Of a DNA stretch of 64,000 nt, positions 451 to 8,206 are shown piece by piece. The position numbers and the translations under genes are program-made. How positions within the stretch are numbered: position 1 is the stretch's first letter; each line of letters begins with the position of its first letter. The DNA is taken from positions 496,001 through 560,000 of the forward strand of contig NZ_BMCR01000003.1 of the NCBI RefSeq assembly GCF_014635285.1, in the 5' to 3' direction. A model generated the notes under the pieces. That model made no database searches, had not been told where the DNA came from, and worked only from the letters and a program-made list of their open reading frames with translations. This DNA comes from Stappia taiwanensis. Its GTDB lineage: Bacteria > Pseudomonadota > Alphaproteobacteria > Rhizobiales > Stappiaceae.

Positions 451-667
451 GGACAGGCGCCGGCCGGGAGCGAAACCGGCCGGAATCGGCGGGCTTTCCT
501 GGCCCCGGTCGCCAGTGTCGATGGAGGCCAGCCAGGGCGATTGACACTTCCTGCCGGTCCGGCGAGAGTGTATGGAGATTGAAGGCGGCGTTTTCGTTGT
601 GCGCCGCTTTTTCATTTTCCTGCGGCAGAGCCTCGGCGGCGATGCGGTGAGAAGATGAAATCATGTT

Positions 668-884
668 CTGCGGGAGAGACCGGGGCGACAAGCTCCGGCG
701 CCGAAGGAGCAACCGCCCCGGAAACTCTCAGGCCAAAGGACCGCAGGCCAAGCAACGCTCTGGAAAGCAGTGCGACCGGGACATTGGACCGGCCGGGCTC
801 ACCGAAGGAGTAACCGCCGGACGGCATCGCGCAGCGCGCGATCCAGCCGCAGGGCGGGAAATCTCTCAGGTTGTCGGGACAGAG
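668..884 (+). promoter_or_regulatory. Tandem glycine riboswitch upstream of gcvT
   Basis: Two glycine aptamers lie in series. The first (668-746) is closed by CTGCGG at 668-673 pairing with CCGCAG at 741-746. It contains the family core elements GGAGAG, GCCGAAGGAGCAA and CTCTCAGG..AAAGGAC. The second (758-884) is closed by CTCTG at 758-762 with CAGAG at 880-884. It repeats CACCGAAGGAGTAA and TCTCTCAGG, with a longer variable P3 arm. The linker is about 11 bases. The gcvT start follows 58 bases later. Known members of this class turn on glycine cleavage genes when glycine binds. I see no obvious intrinsic terminator between the second aptamer and gcvT, so control may act on translation (inference). 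Confidence 0.93.
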
Positions 885-942: not shown

Positions 943-2091
943 ATGACCCTTGAGACCGACGCTCCCCTTCTGTCGACACCGCTGACCGACCTGCATCGGG
1001 AGCTGGGCGCGCGCCTCGTTCCCTTCGCCGGCTACGAGATGCCGGTACAGTTTCCCGCCGGCATCATCGCCGAGCATACCCACACCCGCGAAGCCGCCGG
1101 TCTGTTCGATGTCTCGCACATGGGTCAGGCCTATCTGGTCGGCCCCGATCACGAGACCACCGCCCGGGCGCTGGAGCGGATCGTCCCCTCCGACATCTTG
1201 AACCTGAAGCACGGCCGGCAGCGCTATTCGGTGCTTCTGAACGACGAAGGCGGCATCATCGACGATCTGATGGTGACCCGGCCTGTCTCGGAGGCCGCGG
1301 ACGGCCGGCTGTTCCTGGTGGTCAATGCCTCGCGCAAGGCGGTGGATTACGACTTCATCCGCGCTGCCCTGCCGGACAATGTCCGGCTGGAGCCGATCGA
1401 GGACCGCGCACTGATCGCCGTTCAGGGACCGCAGGCCGCCGCCGTGGTCGCTGCCCATGCGCCTCAGGCGGCGGAACTGGCTTTCATGGCCGCCGCGCCG
1501 ATGGAGTTCGACGGCATCGCCTGTCACGTCTCGCGCTGCGGCTACACCGGCGAGGATGGCTATGAGCTGTCCGTTCCCGCCGGAGCAGCCGAGGCGATCG
1601 CCCGGGCACTGCTCGCTGATGAGCGGGTCCAGCCGATCGGTCTCGGCGCCCGCGATTCGCTGCGCCTTGAGGCCGGGCTCTGCCTTTACGGTCATGACAT
1701 CGACGAGACGACCTCGCCGGTCGAGGGCGCCATCACCTTCGTCTTGCAGAAGCGGCGCAAGGAAGCGGGAGACTTCCCCGGCGCGGACCGGATCCTGTCG
1801 GAGCTGGAAGCAGGCCCGAAGCGTGTGCGTGTCGGCCTGCGGCCGGAAGGCCGGGCACCGGCGCGCGAGGGCGCGGAAATCCGCGACGCCAGCGGCACGG
1901 TCGTCGGCACCGTCACCTCCGGCGGCTTCGCGCCGACGCTCGGGGCGCCGATTGCCATGGGGTATGTCGATGCCGCCCATGCGGCGCCGGGCACTGCCCT
2001 CGTTCTGGTGGTGCGCGGGCGTGAATTGCCCGCTACCGTTGCCGACATGCCCTTCGTGCCGCAGCGCTACTACCGCAAACCGAAATCCTGA
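943..2091 (+). CDS. gcvT: Glycine cleavage system T protein (aminomethyltransferase)
   Basis: This 382-residue protein is full length for the GcvT family. It transfers the methylene carbon from the aminomethyl-lipoyl arm of GcvH to tetrahydrofolate and releases ammonia, in the cytoplasm. Family features are the N-terminal LxxxHxxLGA..VPFAGYEMP region, the DVSHMGQ segment, and the GYTGEDGYE motif near residue 200. The C-terminal barrel ends in FVPQRYYRK. The ATG is preceded by an AGGA-type ribosome site. It is the first gene of the operon under the glycine riboswitch. Confidence 0.97.
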   Translation: MTLETDAPLLSTPLTDLHRELGARLVPFAGYEMPVQFPAGIIAEHTHTREAAGLFDVSHMGQAYLVGPDHETTARALERIVPSDILNLKHGRQRYSVLLNDEGGIIDDLMVTRPVSEAADGRLFLVVNASRKAVDYDFIRAALPDNVRLEPIEDRALIAVQGPQAAAVVAAHAPQAAELAFMAAAPMEFDGIACHVSRCGYTGEDGYELSVPAGAAEAIARALLADERVQPIGLGARDSLRLEAGLCLYGHDIDETTSPVEGAITFVLQKRRKEAGDFPGADRILSELEAGPKRVRVGLRPEGRAPAREGAEIRDASGTVVGTVTSGGFAPTLGAPIAMGYVDAAHAAPGTALVLVVRGRELPATVADMPFVPQRYYRKPKS

Positions 2092-2139: not shown

Positions 2140-2511
2140 ATGACCACCCGTTACACCGAAGACCACGAATGGATCACCGTCGAGGGCGATGTCGCCACCG
2201 TCGGCATCACCAACTACGCCCAGGAACAGCTTGGCGATGTGGTGTTCGTCGAACTGCCCGATGCCGGCAAGACCGTCGCCAAGGGCGATGAAGCCGCCGT
2301 GGTGGAAAGCGTCAAGGCCGCGTCCGAGGTCTTCGCCCCGCTCGATGGCGAGATCGTCGAGGCCAACACCGCCCTTGCCGATGAGCCGGGCAAGGTCAAC
2401 GAGGATCCGGAAGGCGCCGCCTGGTTCGTCAAGATCCGCATGAGCGACAAGAGCCAGCTCGACGGCATGATGGACGCGGACGCCTACAAAGCTCACCTGG
2501 AAGGTCTTTAA
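2140..2511 (+). CDS. gcvH: Glycine cleavage system H protein
   Basis: The gene encodes a 123-residue lipoyl carrier of the glycine cleavage complex. The lipoylated lysine lies in the ESVKAASE motif of the central beta hairpin. The N-terminal TEDHEWI signature is also present. It shuttles the aminomethyl group from the P protein to the T protein and passes electrons to dihydrolipoamide dehydrogenase, which is not encoded here. It starts 48 bases after gcvT behind a GGGAGA ribosome site, so it is co-transcribed. Confidence 0.97.
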
Positions 2512-2516
2512 AGACC

Positions 2517-2996
2517 ATGGCCCGGCACCTCTATCAGGCGGAGATCACCTGGACCTGCGAGGGCGACTTCGCGGCCAATGCCTATTCGCGTGGGCACCAC
2601 TGGTCGTTCGATGGCGGAGTGCAGGTGCTTGCCTCCTCCTCGCCGTCAATGGTGCCGCTGCCCCAGTCCATTGAAGCCGCCGTCGATCCGGAAGAAGGCT
2701 TCGTCGCGGCGCTGTCGAGCTGCCACATGCTGTGGTTCCTCGATCTGGCCCGCCGCGACGGTCTGGACGTCAAGGCCTATCGGGATGAAGCCGAAGGGGT
2801 GATGGAGCGAATTGCCCCCGGCAAGATGGCGGTCACCCGCGTCATCCTGCGGCCCGAGGTTACCTTTGGCGGCACCGAATTGCCGGAGGCTGCGCGGGTC
2901 GCGCATCTCCACCACCGGGCCCATGAGGCGTGTTTCATCGCCAATTCCGTGACGAGCGAGATCGAACTGGCCGCGCGCCCGTCGATCCTCGCCTGA
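2517..2996 (+). CDS. OsmC/Ohr family protein within the gcv operon
   Basis: This 159-residue protein belongs to the OsmC/Ohr thiol-peroxidase superfamily. It has the two expected cysteines, one in [12 protein letters not shown] at mid-protein and one in HEACFIANS near the C-terminus. In characterised relatives these form the peroxidatic and resolving pair acting on organic hydroperoxides. It starts 5 bases after the gcvH stop, so it is translated as part of the gcv operon. The family call is strong. A role in glycine cleavage is inferred only from position, for example protecting the dithiol lipoyl arm of GcvH. Confidence 0.88.
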
Positions 2997-3015: not shown

Positions 3016-4359
3016 ATGCGGTATCTGCCGCTTTCCGATACCGACCGCGCCGATATGCGCGCCCGTGTCGGTGTTTCGGACATCAACGAGATTTTTGCCG
3101 ATATTCCCGAAAGTGCCCGGCTGGACGGTCTGCTCGACCTGCCGCTGCACCAGAGCGAATTCGCGGTCGAACGCGACATGGCGCGCATGGCCGCGAAGAA
3201 CGTGGCGGCTTCCTCGGTGCCGTTCTTCGTCGGCGCCGGCGCCTACAAGCATCACGTGCCGGCCAGCGTCGATCACCTGATCCAGCGCTCCGAGTTTCTC
3301 ACCTCCTATACGCCGTATCAGCCGGAGGTGACGCAAGGCACGCTGCAGTACCTGTTCGAGTTCCAGACCCAGGTCGCCGCCCTGACCGGCATGGAGGTGG
3401 CCAATGCCTCCATGTATGACGGCTCGACGGCCACCGCCGAGGCGGTGCTGATGGCCCACCGGGTCACCCGGCGCAACAAGGCGGTGTTGTCCGGCGGCCT
3501 GCACCCGCAGTACCGTGCTGTGACCGAGGGGCTCAGCGAGATGGCCGGCGACCGGGTGGTCAGCCTTGCGGCCGATCCGACCGGGACGGAGGATATCCTC
3601 GCCGCAATCGATGACGAGACCTCCTGCGTCGTCGTCCAGTCGCCCAATTTCTACGGCCAGTTGGTCGACCTCAAGCCGATTGCCGAGAAGGCCCATGCCC
3701 ATGGGGCGCTGCTGATCGCCGTCTGCACCGAGGTGGTGTCGCTCGGCCTGATCGAGCCGCCGGGCGCGCAAGGCGCCGATATCGTCGTCGGCGAGGGCCA
3801 GTCCATCGGCAACGGCCTCAATTTCGGCGGTCCCTATGTGGGGCTGTTCGCCACGCGGCAGAAGTTCATCCGGCAGATGCCGGGCCGGCTCTGCGGTGAG
3901 ACCGTCGATGCCAATGGCAAGCGCGGCTATGTGCTGACGCTCTCCACCCGCGAGCAGCATATCCGCCGCGACAAGGCGACGTCGAACATCTGCACCAACT
4001 CCGGGCTGTGCTGCCTGGCCTTCACCATTCACATGACGCTTTTGGGCGGAAATGGTCTGGCGACGCTGGCGCGCATCAACCACGCCAGCGCGGTGAAGCT
4101 GAAGGCGGCGCTGGAAGAGGTGCCGGGGGTGTCGGTGCTGAACGACACGTTCTTCAACGAATTCACGGTGAAGCTGCCCAAGCCCGCGGCCGAGGTGGTC
4201 GAGGAACTGGCCAAGCGCGGCGTGCTCGGCGGTGTGCCGGTGTCGCGGCTGGAGCCCGGCCAGGCGGAGCTTGAGCCCCTGCTTCTGGTGGCCGCGAGCG
4301 AGGTCAACAGCGACGAGGACCGGGCGGCCTTCGTTACGGCGCTGAAGGAGGTGCTGTGA
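3016..4359 (+). CDS. gcvPA: Glycine dehydrogenase (decarboxylating) subunit 1
   Basis: The 447 residues match the N-terminal half of a split P protein. The start [14 protein letters not shown], the [13 protein letters not shown] segment and the [13 protein letters not shown] motif are typical of GcvPA. With GcvPB it decarboxylates glycine and loads the aminomethyl group on GcvH. An AAAGGAG ribosome site precedes the ATG. The gene now ends ...GAGGTGCTG-TGA. That TGA overlaps the start of the foreign gene that follows, which has displaced the original direct junction with gcvPB. Confidence 0.96.
4348..4356 (+). repeat. Left copy of 9-bp direct repeat flanking the gcv insert
   Basis: GAGGTGCTG forms the last codons of gcvPA and contains the Shine-Dalgarno sequence GAGGTG, 5 bases before the ATG at 4359. 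The identical 9-mer recurs at 4831-4839. The two copies bracket a low-GC gene, as a target duplication or a recombination between short homologies would leave. Confidence 0.75.
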
Positions 4360-4832
4360 TGGTTGACGGTTTGACGGCGGCGGTCGCAGGAGTTTCTAGT
4401 GCTCTGAGAATTGCAAAGCACATATTTGAAATAAATGCGGAACTCCAAAAAAGTGACCTCAAACTCAAGATGGCGGAAGTGATAGCGGCTTTGTCAGATG
4501 CCAAGGTTGCACTCAGCGAAGCCAAATCTGAATTATATGAAAAATCTCAAGAAATTGAGAGGCTAAGAAACTCTTCTATCAGAATAGATGGGCTGACGAA
4601 GCAGGGTGAGCTTTTCTATGATGGCGAGGTTTTAAAAGCCAATGCTAAGTGTCCAAGGTGTGTTGAGCATGATAGGCGGGTAATTAGTATTGTTGAGGAT
4701 GTCGAGTTTGGCGGGCATAGATTGAAGTGTCATGCGTGCGGAAGTGTTTACAAAAATCCATTCCACCAGAATTCTAGTGATTTTGGGCACGGTCGCGTCA
4801 TTCAAGACTACGATCCCCTGGAAGGAATCTGA
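4359..4832 (+). CDS. Low-GC inserted gene: coiled-coil plus zinc-ribbon protein
   Basis: This 157-residue protein has an N-terminal hydrophobic/amphipathic stretch (residues 1-27) and a heptad-rich coiled coil (about 28-72). A C-terminal four-cysteine zinc ribbon follows, with CPRC at 98-101 and CHAC at 124-127. A line I counted (4381-4440) is about 43% GC against roughly two thirds GC in gcvPA and gcvPB, and the codon use is AT-rich, so the gene was acquired. GTG at 4356 is an in-frame alternative start. The gene is bracketed by a 9-bp direct repeat that supplies its ribosome site and that of gcvPB. The architecture resembles small proteins carried by prophages and genomic islands (recollection, not a search). 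The function is unknown. Confidence 0.8.
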   Translation: MVDGLTAAVAGVSSALRIAKHIFEINAELQKSDLKLKMAEVIAALSDAKVALSEAKSELYEKSQEIERLRNSSIRIDGLTKQGELFYDGEVLKANAKCPRCVEHDRRVISIVEDVEFGGHRLKCHACGSVYKNPFHQNSSDFGHGRVIQDYDPLEGI

Positions 4833-4839
4833 GGTGCTG
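4831..4839 (+). repeat. Right copy of 9-bp direct repeat flanking the gcv insert
   Basis: This second GAGGTGCTG has its GAGGTG core 5 bases before the gcvPB ATG at 4842, the same spacing as in the left copy. Deleting one repeat unit (483 bp) would give GAGGTGCTGGCATGAGC. There gcvPA would end Val-Leu-Ala-stop with a classic ATGA overlap onto gcvPB. Confidence 0.75.
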
Positions 4840-4841
4840 GC

Positions 4842-6434
4842 ATGAGCATGAACACGCAAGGACGGCCGTCCGCGCCGACAGAGGCCGGCGGCACTGCGGC
4901 GCATGAGACCTTCACCGGCAACAAGGCGCTGCAGATGGAAGAGGCGCTGATCTTCGAGATCGGCCGCAACGACGTCTGCGGTGTGGACCTTGAGGAGCCG
5001 GAGGACTTCGTTCCGGCGCTTGGCGGCCATGCCCGCCGCGCCGAACTGGACCTGCCGGCCCTGACCGAGCCGGAGGCGATGCGCCACTATGTGCGCCTGT
5101 CGTCGAAGAACTACGCCATCGACGCCGGGCTCTATCCGCTCGGCTCCTGCACCATGAAGCACAATCCGCGTCTTAACGAGAAGATGGCGCGGCTTCCGGG
5201 CTTTGCTGACGTTCACCCGCTGCAGCCGCGCTCCACGGTAACCGGCGCGGTGGAGATGATCGCCGAACTGGCCCATTGGCTGGTGACCCTGACCGGCATG
5301 GAAGCGGTGGCGATGAGCCCCAAGGCCGGCGCCCATGGCGAGCTGTGCGGCATGATGGCGATCAAGGCGGCACACACCGCCGCCGGCCGTGATCCCAAGG
5401 TGGTGCTGGTGCCGGAATCGGCCCATGGCACCAACCCGGCGACGGCGGCGCTGCTCGGTTACAAGGTGGTGTCCATCGAGGCGCGTGAGGATGGCACGGT
5501 CGACACCCAGGCGGTGCAGGACCGGATCGCTGAACACGCGGGAAATGTCGCCGGCATCATGCTGACCAACCCGAACACCTGCGGGCTGTTCGAGCGGGAC
5601 ATCATCGCCATTGCCGAGGCGATCCATGCGGCGGATGGCTACTTCTACTGCGATGGCGCCAATTTCAACGCCATCGTCGGCAAGGCCCGGCCCGGGGATC
5701 TCGGCGTCGATGCCATGCATATCAACCTGCACAAGACCTTCTCCACGCCTCATGGCGGTGGCGGTCCGGGCTCTGGCCCAGTGGTGTTGTCGGAGCGTCT
5801 GGCGCCCTTCGCGCCGCTGCCGTTCCTGCGCAAAGGGCCGGACGGGCCGGAGTGGATCGAGAGCGAGGCGGAGCTCCAGGACGGCGAGCAGCCGTTCGGC
5901 CGGATGACCGCCTTCCACGGCCAGATGGGCATGTATGTGCGGGCGCTCGCCTACATGAAGAGCCACGGTGCCGACGGCCTGCGCCAGGCGTCGGAAGACG
6001 CGGTGCTCAACGCCAATTATGTGCGTGTCGGCCTTGAGGACCTGATGAGCCTGCCGTTCGGCTCGCGCTGGTGCATGCATGAGGTGCTGTTCGACGACAG
6101 TTTCCTCAAGGATACCGGTGTGACCACCCTCGATTTCGCCAAGGCGATGATCGACGAGGGCTACCATCCGATGACCATGTACTTCCCGCTGGTCGTCCAT
6201 GGCGCGATGCTGATCGAGCCGACGGAATCGGAAAGCCGCGCCGCGCTCGATCTGTTCATCGCCACCATGCGCGATCTGGTGATGAGCGCGCAGCGGGGCG
6301 AGACCGGTCGCTTCAAGGGAGCGCCGTTCCATGCGCCGCGGGCCCGCCTCGACGAAACCCGGGCGGCGCGCAAGCCGGTGCTGAAGTGGCAGCGTCCGGC
6401 CGCCAGCGAGGTGCAGCCGCAAGCGGCCGAGTAG
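4842..6434 (+). CDS. gcvPB: Glycine dehydrogenase (decarboxylating) subunit 2
   Basis: The 530-residue protein is the C-terminal, PLP-binding half of the split P protein. The PLP lysine lies in INLHKTFSTPHGGGGPG, and LGSCTMKHNPR is a family signature. The C-terminus carries an extra Ala/Pro-rich tail of about 25 residues. It pairs with GcvPA to decarboxylate glycine. It is translated from the GAGGTG in the right-hand direct repeat. It is the last gene of the operon, with an intrinsic terminator about 30 bases downstream. Confidence 0.96.
   Translation: MSMNTQGRPSAPTEAGGTAAHETFTGNKALQMEEALIFEIGRNDVCGVDLEEPEDFVPALGGHARRAELDLPALTEPEAMRHYVRLSSKNYAIDAGLYPLGSCTMKHNPRLNEKMARLPGFADVHPLQPRSTVTGAVEMIAELAHWLVTLTGMEAVAMSPKAGAHGELCGMMAIKAAHTAAGRDPKVVLVPESAHGTNPATAALLGYKVVSIEAREDGTVDTQAVQDRIAEHAGNVAGIMLTNPNTCGLFERDIIAIAEAIHAADGYFYCDGANFNAIVGKARPGDLGVDAMHINLHKTFSTPHGGGGPGSGPVVLSERLAPFAPLPFLRKGPDGPEWIESEAELQDGEQPFGRMTAFHGQMGMYVRALAYMKSHGADGLRQASEDAVLNANYVRVGLEDLMSLPFGSRWCMHEVLFDDSFLKDTGVTTLDFAKAMIDEGYHPMTMYFPLVVHGAMLIEPTESESRAALDLFIATMRDLVMSAQRGETGRFKGAPFHAPRARLDETRAARKPVLKWQRPAASEVQPQAAE

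Positions 6435-6627: not shown

Positions 6628-8206
<1,579 letters not shown>

What the first reader, a model, noticed from the sequence alone, without database searches (positions are those of the whole stretch)
4348..4839. A foreign 483-bp gene unit placed exactly between gcvPA and gcvPB, with its ribosome site in the flanking repeat
Seen: the line at 4381-4440 is about 43% GC, against roughly two thirds GC around it. The insert is bracketed by identical 9-mers GAGGTGCTG at 4348-4356 and 4831-4839. In both copies GAGGTG sits 5 bases before the ATG (4359 and 4842), so the insert and gcvPB share the same translation start context. Removing one unit gives GAGGTGCTGGCATGAGC, an ATGA overlap typical of an ancestral gcvPA-gcvPB junction. 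The encoded protein has a coiled coil and a CPRC/CHAC zinc ribbon. Inference: an unknown small mobile cassette, or recombination between short homologies, entered a core operon while keeping both genes translated. No transposase or terminal inverted repeats were seen.
Basis: partly seen in the sequence, partly recalled or inferred. Interest (0 to 1): 0.85.

Follow-up and report, generated by a model that had tools for sequence, protein, structure and literature searches.

The report
Repeated single-gene landing site in gcv operon
A small foreign gene was slotted exactly between the two genes of a basic glycine-degrading enzyme, and related bacteria have done the same at the same spot with different small genes, so this junction looks like a repeated landing site for single accessory genes.

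Summary
A 157-aa ORF (GC 0.45, flanks about 0.65) sits between gcvPA and gcvPB, bracketed by GAGGTGCTG at the stated places. The closest relative (gcvPA 97% identical) has exactly the predicted empty site. Of 76 family genomes with split gcvPA/gcvPB, 7 have an ORF-sized insert at this junction and 69 are empty. These are five protein families and at least six events; three more genomes of the order carry other inserts there. Two control ATGA junctions (nadB|nadC, hisS|hisZ) had none in 74 and 76 genomes. The flanking repeat clearly exceeds ordinary ribosome-site similarity only in the three most AT-rich inserts (9, 10, 16 bp). Its variable length, and the absence of terminal inverted repeats or a transposase, argue against a transposon. 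The window protein belongs to phage family phrog_1244 (coiled coil plus zinc ribbon), a solitary gene of phages, plasmids and restriction islands. Best reading: a moron-like accessory gene captured by short-homology recombination at a translation-coupled junction of a riboswitch-headed operon, then kept by selection. Why this junction is hot is unexplained; site-directed insertion is not excluded.

The parts
661..753 (+). glycine riboswitch aptamer (RF00504) upstream of gcvT
   Evidence: Rfam 69.4 bits, gathering 32
943..2091 (+). gcvT, first gene of the operon (name by eye from translation)
   Evidence: ORF; collinear in 29 of 30 family loci read
2140..2511 (+). gcvH (name by eye)
   Evidence: ORF
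2517..2996 (+). OsmC-like gene inside the gcv operon
   Evidence: Pfam PF02566 E 1.8e-12; present in 30 of 30 family loci read
3016..4359 (+). gcvPA, last codon lost relative to empty alleles
4348..4356 (+). left copy of the 9-bp direct repeat GAGGTGCTG, carries the ribosome site of the inserted gene
4359..4832 (+). inserted solitary gene, phrog_1244 family, 157 aa
4446..4574 (+). predicted coiled coil of the insert (by eye, about residues 30-72)
   Evidence: sequence; weak Rad50-type coiled-coil hit over residues 28-102
4650..4739 (+). zinc-ribbon cysteines CPRC...CHAC (residues 98-127)
   Evidence: C98 and C101 invariant in 8 aligned relatives
4831..4839 (+). right copy of the repeat, carries the ribosome site of gcvPB
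4842..6434 (+). gcvPB

Best explanation
A solitary accessory gene of the phage, plasmid and restriction-island gene pool (phrog_1244 family) was captured at the gcvPA|gcvPB junction by illegitimate recombination between short homologies in the 20-bp ribosome-site/start region AAGGAGGTGCTGGCATGAGC, leaving a 9-bp duplication. The junction tolerates such capture because gcvPA, the newcomer and gcvPB can be chained by overlapping or nearly overlapping stops and starts behind strong ribosome sites, so the newcomer needs no promoter and gcvPB stays translated, all within an operon headed by a glycine riboswitch. Shown: insertion, exact empty site, at least nine events with seven or eight protein families at this junction in the order, none at two control junctions. 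Inferred: the short-homology route, coupled riboswitch-controlled expression, and a protective role of the cargo against phages or competitor toxins.
For: Exact empty site in all 13 other genus members. 7 of 76 family genomes filled, the other measured gaps at most 8 bp (G007 read). Controls 0 of 74 and 0 of 76, Fisher p 0.0004 by genomes and 0.0013 by six events. Nine filled rows need 8 changes on the gcvPA tree. In G034 the flanks are 97-100% identical to its empty relatives right up to the insert. Junction repeats of 16, 10 and 9 bp in the three most AT-rich family inserts exceed ribosome-site similarity (0, 1 and 3 of 200). No transposase, no inverted repeats at the ends. Homologues are solitary genes in phages, plasmids and near restriction genes. 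The G028/G306 insert is under purifying selection, dN 0.11, dS 0.89. Glycine riboswitch.
Against: Five of ten inserts show no repeat beyond ribosome-site similarity (74-197 of 200), so short homology is supported mainly by three. Only two control junctions were measured. In the same operon G020 carries a second accessory ORF at osmC|gcvPA, so the receptive unit may be the operon rather than the junction. Excess at this one junction is not explained by random short-homology recombination alone. Ku is absent from the seven filled family genomes, so Ku end joining is not the route there. No expression data.
Confidence: 0.55

Rival explanations
1. Site-directed insertion: an enzyme acting in trans (integrase, homing-type nuclease or other) recognises or cuts the conserved junction, and single ORFs are captured there with a target duplication.
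For: At least nine events in one 20-bp site, none at two control junctions. Members of one rare protein family (G034, G332) occur in only 2 of 87 family genomes, and both times exactly here, in different genera; a third, weakly similar one (G593, phmmer E 2e-4 to 4e-4 in an 11-protein set, hhalign probability 10.8%) also lies here.
Against: Duplication length and position vary; insert ends share nothing; no nuclease or integrase domain found in the inserts. No candidate enzyme was looked for elsewhere in the genomes.
Confidence: 0.15
2. Selection only: ORFs insert anywhere at random, but this operon junction is one of few places where an insert is both expressed and harmless, so survivors concentrate here.
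For: Inserts are co-directional and coupled; a glycine-riboswitch operon gives ready expression; a second insert in the same operon in G020; the G028/G306 insert is conserved.
Against: nadB|nadC and hisS|hisZ are also ATGA-coupled and held none in 74 and 76 genomes. The long duplications in G000, G034 and G332 call for a specific joining event.
Confidence: 0.2
3. Allele exchange: filled alleles spread between species by homologous recombination through the conserved gcvPA and gcvPB flanks.
For: The flanking genes are highly conserved; a shared insert family in G034 and G332 of different genera.
Against: G034 and G000 flanks follow their own empty relatives up to the insert, without a divergent tract. 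The G034 and G332 inserts are only 42-45% identical. It does not explain the first entry of each gene.
Confidence: 0.08
4. An ancient gene of this operon was lost in most lineages.
For: The G028/G306 insert is shared by two related genomes.
Against: Mostly unrelated proteins at the same place, GC far below the flanks in several, 8 changes on the tree, and every loss would have to restore the same coupled junction.
Confidence: 0.02

Closest known systems
Phage morons (solitary extra genes between conserved phage genes; concept recalled)
   Same: One foreign gene of deviating GC squeezed between conserved genes and missing in relatives; a homologue of the window gene, orf25 of phage D3112, is such a gene.
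   Different: Here in a host metabolic operon, co-directional, coupled, without an evident promoter; morons are recalled as having their own promoter and terminator.
phrog_1244 (phage protein family of unknown function)
   Same: Profile match E 1.4e-8 over residues 3-134; coiled coil and C-terminal zinc ribbon.
   Different: Only 18-33% identical to the relatives aligned; chromosomal single gene.
Orphan immunity genes (CDI/T6SS type, in rAID or immunity islands)
   Same: Small solitary genes that travel without their toxin; a homologue of the G335 insert lies among small genes beside filamentous haemagglutinin genes.
   Different: No such link for the window gene. The orphan I2 homologues described in PMC12247911 were found in recombinase-associated islands or on short scaffolds with such features (passages read), not in core operons.
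Insertion of new genes into operons (Price et al. 2006, recalled; paper not held)
   Same: A foreign gene joins an existing operon.
   Different: Here the same two-base junction is used again and again, with empty and filled alleles in close relatives.
Insertion sequences and integron cassettes
   Same: Target-like duplication; cargo of one gene.
   Different: No transposase, no terminal inverted repeats, variable duplication; attC was not searched for.

Membership tests
phrog_1244 protein family | Full-length profile match | tested here: met
   E 1.4e-8, residues 3-134, profile 3-146 of 157
phrog_1244 protein family | Two Cys pairs of a zinc ribbon at the C end | tested here: met
   C98/C101 invariant in 8 aligned rows; second pair C124/C127 present here and in several of the rows, not in all
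Transposon / insertion sequence | Transposase gene in the element | tested here: not met
   One ORF, no transposase family hit
Transposon / insertion sequence | Terminal inverted repeats | tested here: not met
   None at the ends of the insert
Transposon / insertion sequence | Fixed target-duplication length | tested here: not met
   9, 10 and 16 bp in the three clear cases
Integron gene cassette | attC site and nearby integrase | not tested
   No attC search made
Phage moron | Extra gene of deviating GC between two conserved genes, absent in relatives | tested here: met
Phage moron | Lies in a phage or prophage | tested here: not met
   Lies in the gcv operon; homologues do lie in phages
Phage moron | Own promoter and terminator | not tested
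   No promoter scan was run; coupling suggests none
Orphan immunity gene | Homologues beside a toxin gene | tested here: inconclusive
   Not seen for the window gene in the contexts read; seen beside filamentous haemagglutinin for the G335 insert
Free-standing homing endonuclease | Nuclease domain | tested here: not met
   Only PDDEXK_10 at E 0.1, 13 bits against a cut-off of 21.2
Known defence system gene | PADLOC model match | tested here: not met
   Only a weak LmuB hit, E 0.002, 14.8 bits

The most novel reading that the evidence does not exclude
The gcvPA|gcvPB ribosome-site junction is a specific landing site: an unidentified activity repeatedly places single promoterless ORFs there in step with operon translation, giving this family an exchangeable one-gene slot whose expression is tied to glycine through the operon's riboswitch.
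Probability: 0.15. Interest if true: 0.85.

Novelty: new variant of a known kind. Interest (0 to 1): 0.6.

Why it matters
Gain of single foreign genes inside operons is usually inferred only after the fact. Here one junction shows it repeatedly, with empty and filled alleles in close relatives, so how single genes enter an operon without breaking it becomes testable. Reading what sits in this slot may also be a way to find unknown defence or immunity genes. Control of such genes by a glycine riboswitch would be unusual.

Tried and rejected
Fixed 9-bp rule: rejected (9, 10, 16 bp). Self-mobile cassette: rejected for lack of transposase, inverted repeats or shared ends. Ku end joining: no Ku in the seven filled family genomes; of 18 genomes tested only G593 and G564 have it. 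Import with divergent flanks: no tract in G034 or G000. The window gene as a common gene of the clade: of 61 relatives only G000 itself matched clearly; the G041 hit is E 9e-4. In 240 class genomes phrog_1244 gave 15 genomes at E 1e-3; the five best besides G000 are clear (E 5e-23 or better), the other nine are weak, E 3e-5 to 9e-4.

Searches that gave no relative: viral contigs with the window protein, the G335 insert and alignment A3; phages with the window protein; plasmids with the inserts of G034, G593, G600, G028 and G020; solved structures with the G593 insert. A3 in 289 class genomes gave one marginal hit with a stop inside (E 6.8e-4).

Not every gap is a gene insert. In the order, 125 of 229 genomes matched; 60 junction regions were fetched and read. 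Six of these 60 (G593, G560, G046, G530, G684, G512) were chosen because one search showed them separated, so the sample is not even. Ten had gaps over 90 bp: two hold an AT-rich coupled ORF (G593, G600), two share a 52-aa ORF of local GC (G682, G641), six hold GC-rich or short stretches I do not count. G249 is a third case from the order, outside the 60. In the class, 114 gcvPA/gcvPB pairs are listed in both capped tables (207 of 385 genomes matched, 196); only G249 has a gap over 90 bp.

G000 against G010: 27 alignment gaps over 490 kb, 15 examined; the gcv insert alone combines an ORF, low GC and an exact repeat. A 1064-bp block with an ORF (GC 0.56, no repeat) in G010 and an 888-bp one (GC 0.67) in G000 are other gene-sized differences.

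Literature, search listings only: searches showed no paper describing this junction as an insertion hotspot; one search found no paper naming DUF2513. Searches gave background; PMC12247911 was read as passages. Many subscription papers are outside the library.

Full report
Observation. The sequence is as described. GAGGTGCTG stands at 4348-4356 and 4831-4839, 483 bp apart, and in both copies GAGGTG is 5 bases before an ATG. The ORF 4359-4832 (157 aa) begins inside the gcvPA stop (TGATG), and its stop overlaps the right repeat. GC falls to 0.41-0.42 in the middle against about 0.60-0.71 over the neighbouring gcv genes. A 9-bp repeat is not by itself improbable: two other exact 9-bp pairs lie within the same 551 bp. 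Its strength lies in its place.

Empty site. G010 (gcvPA 97.3%, gcvPB 98.6% identical) reads GAGGTGCTGGCATGAGC at the junction, the predicted ancestral form, and so do all 13 other genomes of the genus. Over 490 kb of synteny G000 and G010 are 93.3% identical. Of 27 alignment gaps there, 15 were examined, and only the gcv insert combines an ORF, low GC and an exact repeat.

Recurrence. All 87 genomes held for the family were searched with a gcvPA-end plus gcvPB-start query. Eleven give only one weak match, as expected of an unsplit gcvP (for two of them one search shows an open frame of about 1000 aa). Of the 76 with gcvPA, seven have an ORF-sized gap at this junction: G000 485 bp, G028 340, G306 340, G332 about 331, G034 328, G020 322, G335 238. 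In 68 others the gap is at most 8 bp; the gcvPB of G007 lies past its contig end, but its junction sequence is the empty one. Each insert is one co-directional ORF chained to its neighbours. By all-against-all comparison they form five groups: the window protein; G034 with G332 (42-45% identical); G028 with G306 (85%); G020; G335 (a G020-G332 similarity at E 0.001-0.009 is weak). The order adds three: G249 (DUF2513, E 3.4e-20), G593 (107 aa, insert GC 0.50) and G600 (114 aa, insert GC 0.46). Genomes of the same families as these three have short or no gaps (G130; G609, G665, G627 and G497). G593 may belong with G034/G332 (phmmer E 2e-4 to 4e-4 in an 11-protein set, hhalign probability 10.8%). 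In the class sample, 114 pairs could be measured and only G249 has a gap over 90 bp.

Controls. Two other ATGA junctions of this genome were measured in 76 family genomes each. For nadB|nadC, 63 two-piece pairs have gaps of at most 26 bp, 11 genomes read as one continuous match, and nadC was not matched in G315 and G319. For hisS|hisZ, 61 pairs have gaps of at most 69 bp and 15 read as one continuous match. So 0 of 74 and 0 of 76, against 7 of 76; Fisher p is 0.0004 by genomes and 0.0013 by six events. Genomes are related, so these are rough. Within the gcv operon, 30 loci show no insert at gcvH|osmC; G020 carries a 121-aa accessory ORF at osmC|gcvPA, and four relatives have a 228-255-bp spacer there (two read: GC-rich, no convincing ORF). 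The operon as a whole may therefore be receptive, and two controls are few.

Independence and age. On a gcvPA tree of 48 rows the nine filled rows need 8 changes, at least 6 by well-supported branches (G600 not included). Counting G028/G306 once, and with G249, G593 and G600, that makes at least nine events. G034 is almost identical in gcvPA to G031 and G026, which are empty, and its flanks are 97-100% identical to theirs near the insert, with no divergent tract. The G028/G306 insert has dN 0.11 and dS 0.89, so it is kept by purifying selection.

Repeats. The longest common run between the two junction copies is 16 bp in G332, 10 in G034, 9 in G000, 8 in G600, 7 in G593 and 4-6 in the other five. 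Against 200 ribosome-site regions of the G000 genome the number reaching the observed value is 0, 1, 3, 11 and 13 for the first five and 74-197 for the rest. The long repeats belong to the three most AT-rich family inserts (GC 0.415-0.454); over seven inserts rho is -0.73, p 0.06. This fits duplication at insertion followed by decay, but ribosome-site similarity explains the short ones equally well. Different lengths, and different parts of one 20-bp site, speak against a transposase. No inverted repeats lie at the window insert's ends, and no common ends are seen by eye. Ku is absent from all seven filled family genomes.

What the gene is. The protein matches phrog_1244 (E 1.4e-8) and nothing in Pfam, NCBIfam or PADLOC at a curated cut-off or convincing score. 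Aligned relatives (8 rows) share the first Cys pair. Contexts, labels by eye from translations: beside a type I specificity gene and HNH-like genes (L003), in a prophage-like tail region (L066), near a restriction-type helicase (L067), near methylase- and transposase-like genes (L068), near phage-type regulators (L070); also on 25 plasmid records, mostly enterobacterial, one read lying close to type VI secretion genes. The window protein itself hit no phage record, but a homologue from G298 hits 50, and in D3112 that gene (orf25) is a reverse-oriented single gene wedged between orf24 and orf26 with 1-2 bp of space or overlap. That is the behaviour of a solitary insertable gene. A protective role is plausible and untested. 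For the G335 insert, a homologue lies in a row of small genes beside filamentous haemagglutinin genes, which suggests an immunity function for that insert only.

How it may work. The operon is headed by a glycine riboswitch, followed by gcvT, gcvH, osmC and gcvPA. An ORF placed between gcvPA and gcvPB with a copy of the native strong ribosome site would be transcribed with the operon and translated by coupling, while gcvPB keeps its own copy. This is inferred from sequence. The route of entry is best described as short-homology illegitimate recombination. Why this junction is preferred is open: conserved sequence, coupling tolerance, expression level, or a nuclease that acts there. The G034/G332 protein family occurs in only 2 of 87 family genomes, both times exactly here, which keeps a site-directed process alive.

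Verdict. The unit is not shown to be mobile by itself. The new result is a recurrent single-gene landing site in a core operon. Interest 0.6; a new variant of operon invasion and moron-like insertion.

Noticed in passing
window 661-753: Glycine riboswitch aptamer at the head of the gcv operon (69.4 bits), so the inserted gene may be under glycine control.
   Followed up: partly
window 2517-2996: An OsmC-like gene sits inside the gcv operon between gcvH and gcvPA and is kept in all 30 family loci read; unusual operon member.
   Followed up: partly
L046 about 1125-1490 (G020): A second accessory ORF (121 aa) lies between osmC and gcvPA in the same genome that has an insert at gcvPA|gcvPB.
   Followed up: partly
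L188 2468-3004 (phage D3112 orf25): A phage relative of the window protein family is wedged in reverse between orf24 and orf26 with 1-2 bp of space or overlap.
   Followed up: partly
L139 and L142 (G682, G641), gcvPA|gcvPB gap: Two genomes of one family share a 52-aa ORF of local GC exactly at this junction, not AT-rich, with no Pfam match.
   Followed up: no
window 6628-7770, minus strand: Looks like a CcrM-type adenine methyltransferase just downstream of gcvPB (label recalled, no search made).
   Followed up: no
G316 C13 4223-5191: hisS and hisZ matches lie in one open frame of 908 aa with about 69 extra bases between them, a possible fusion.
   Followed up: no
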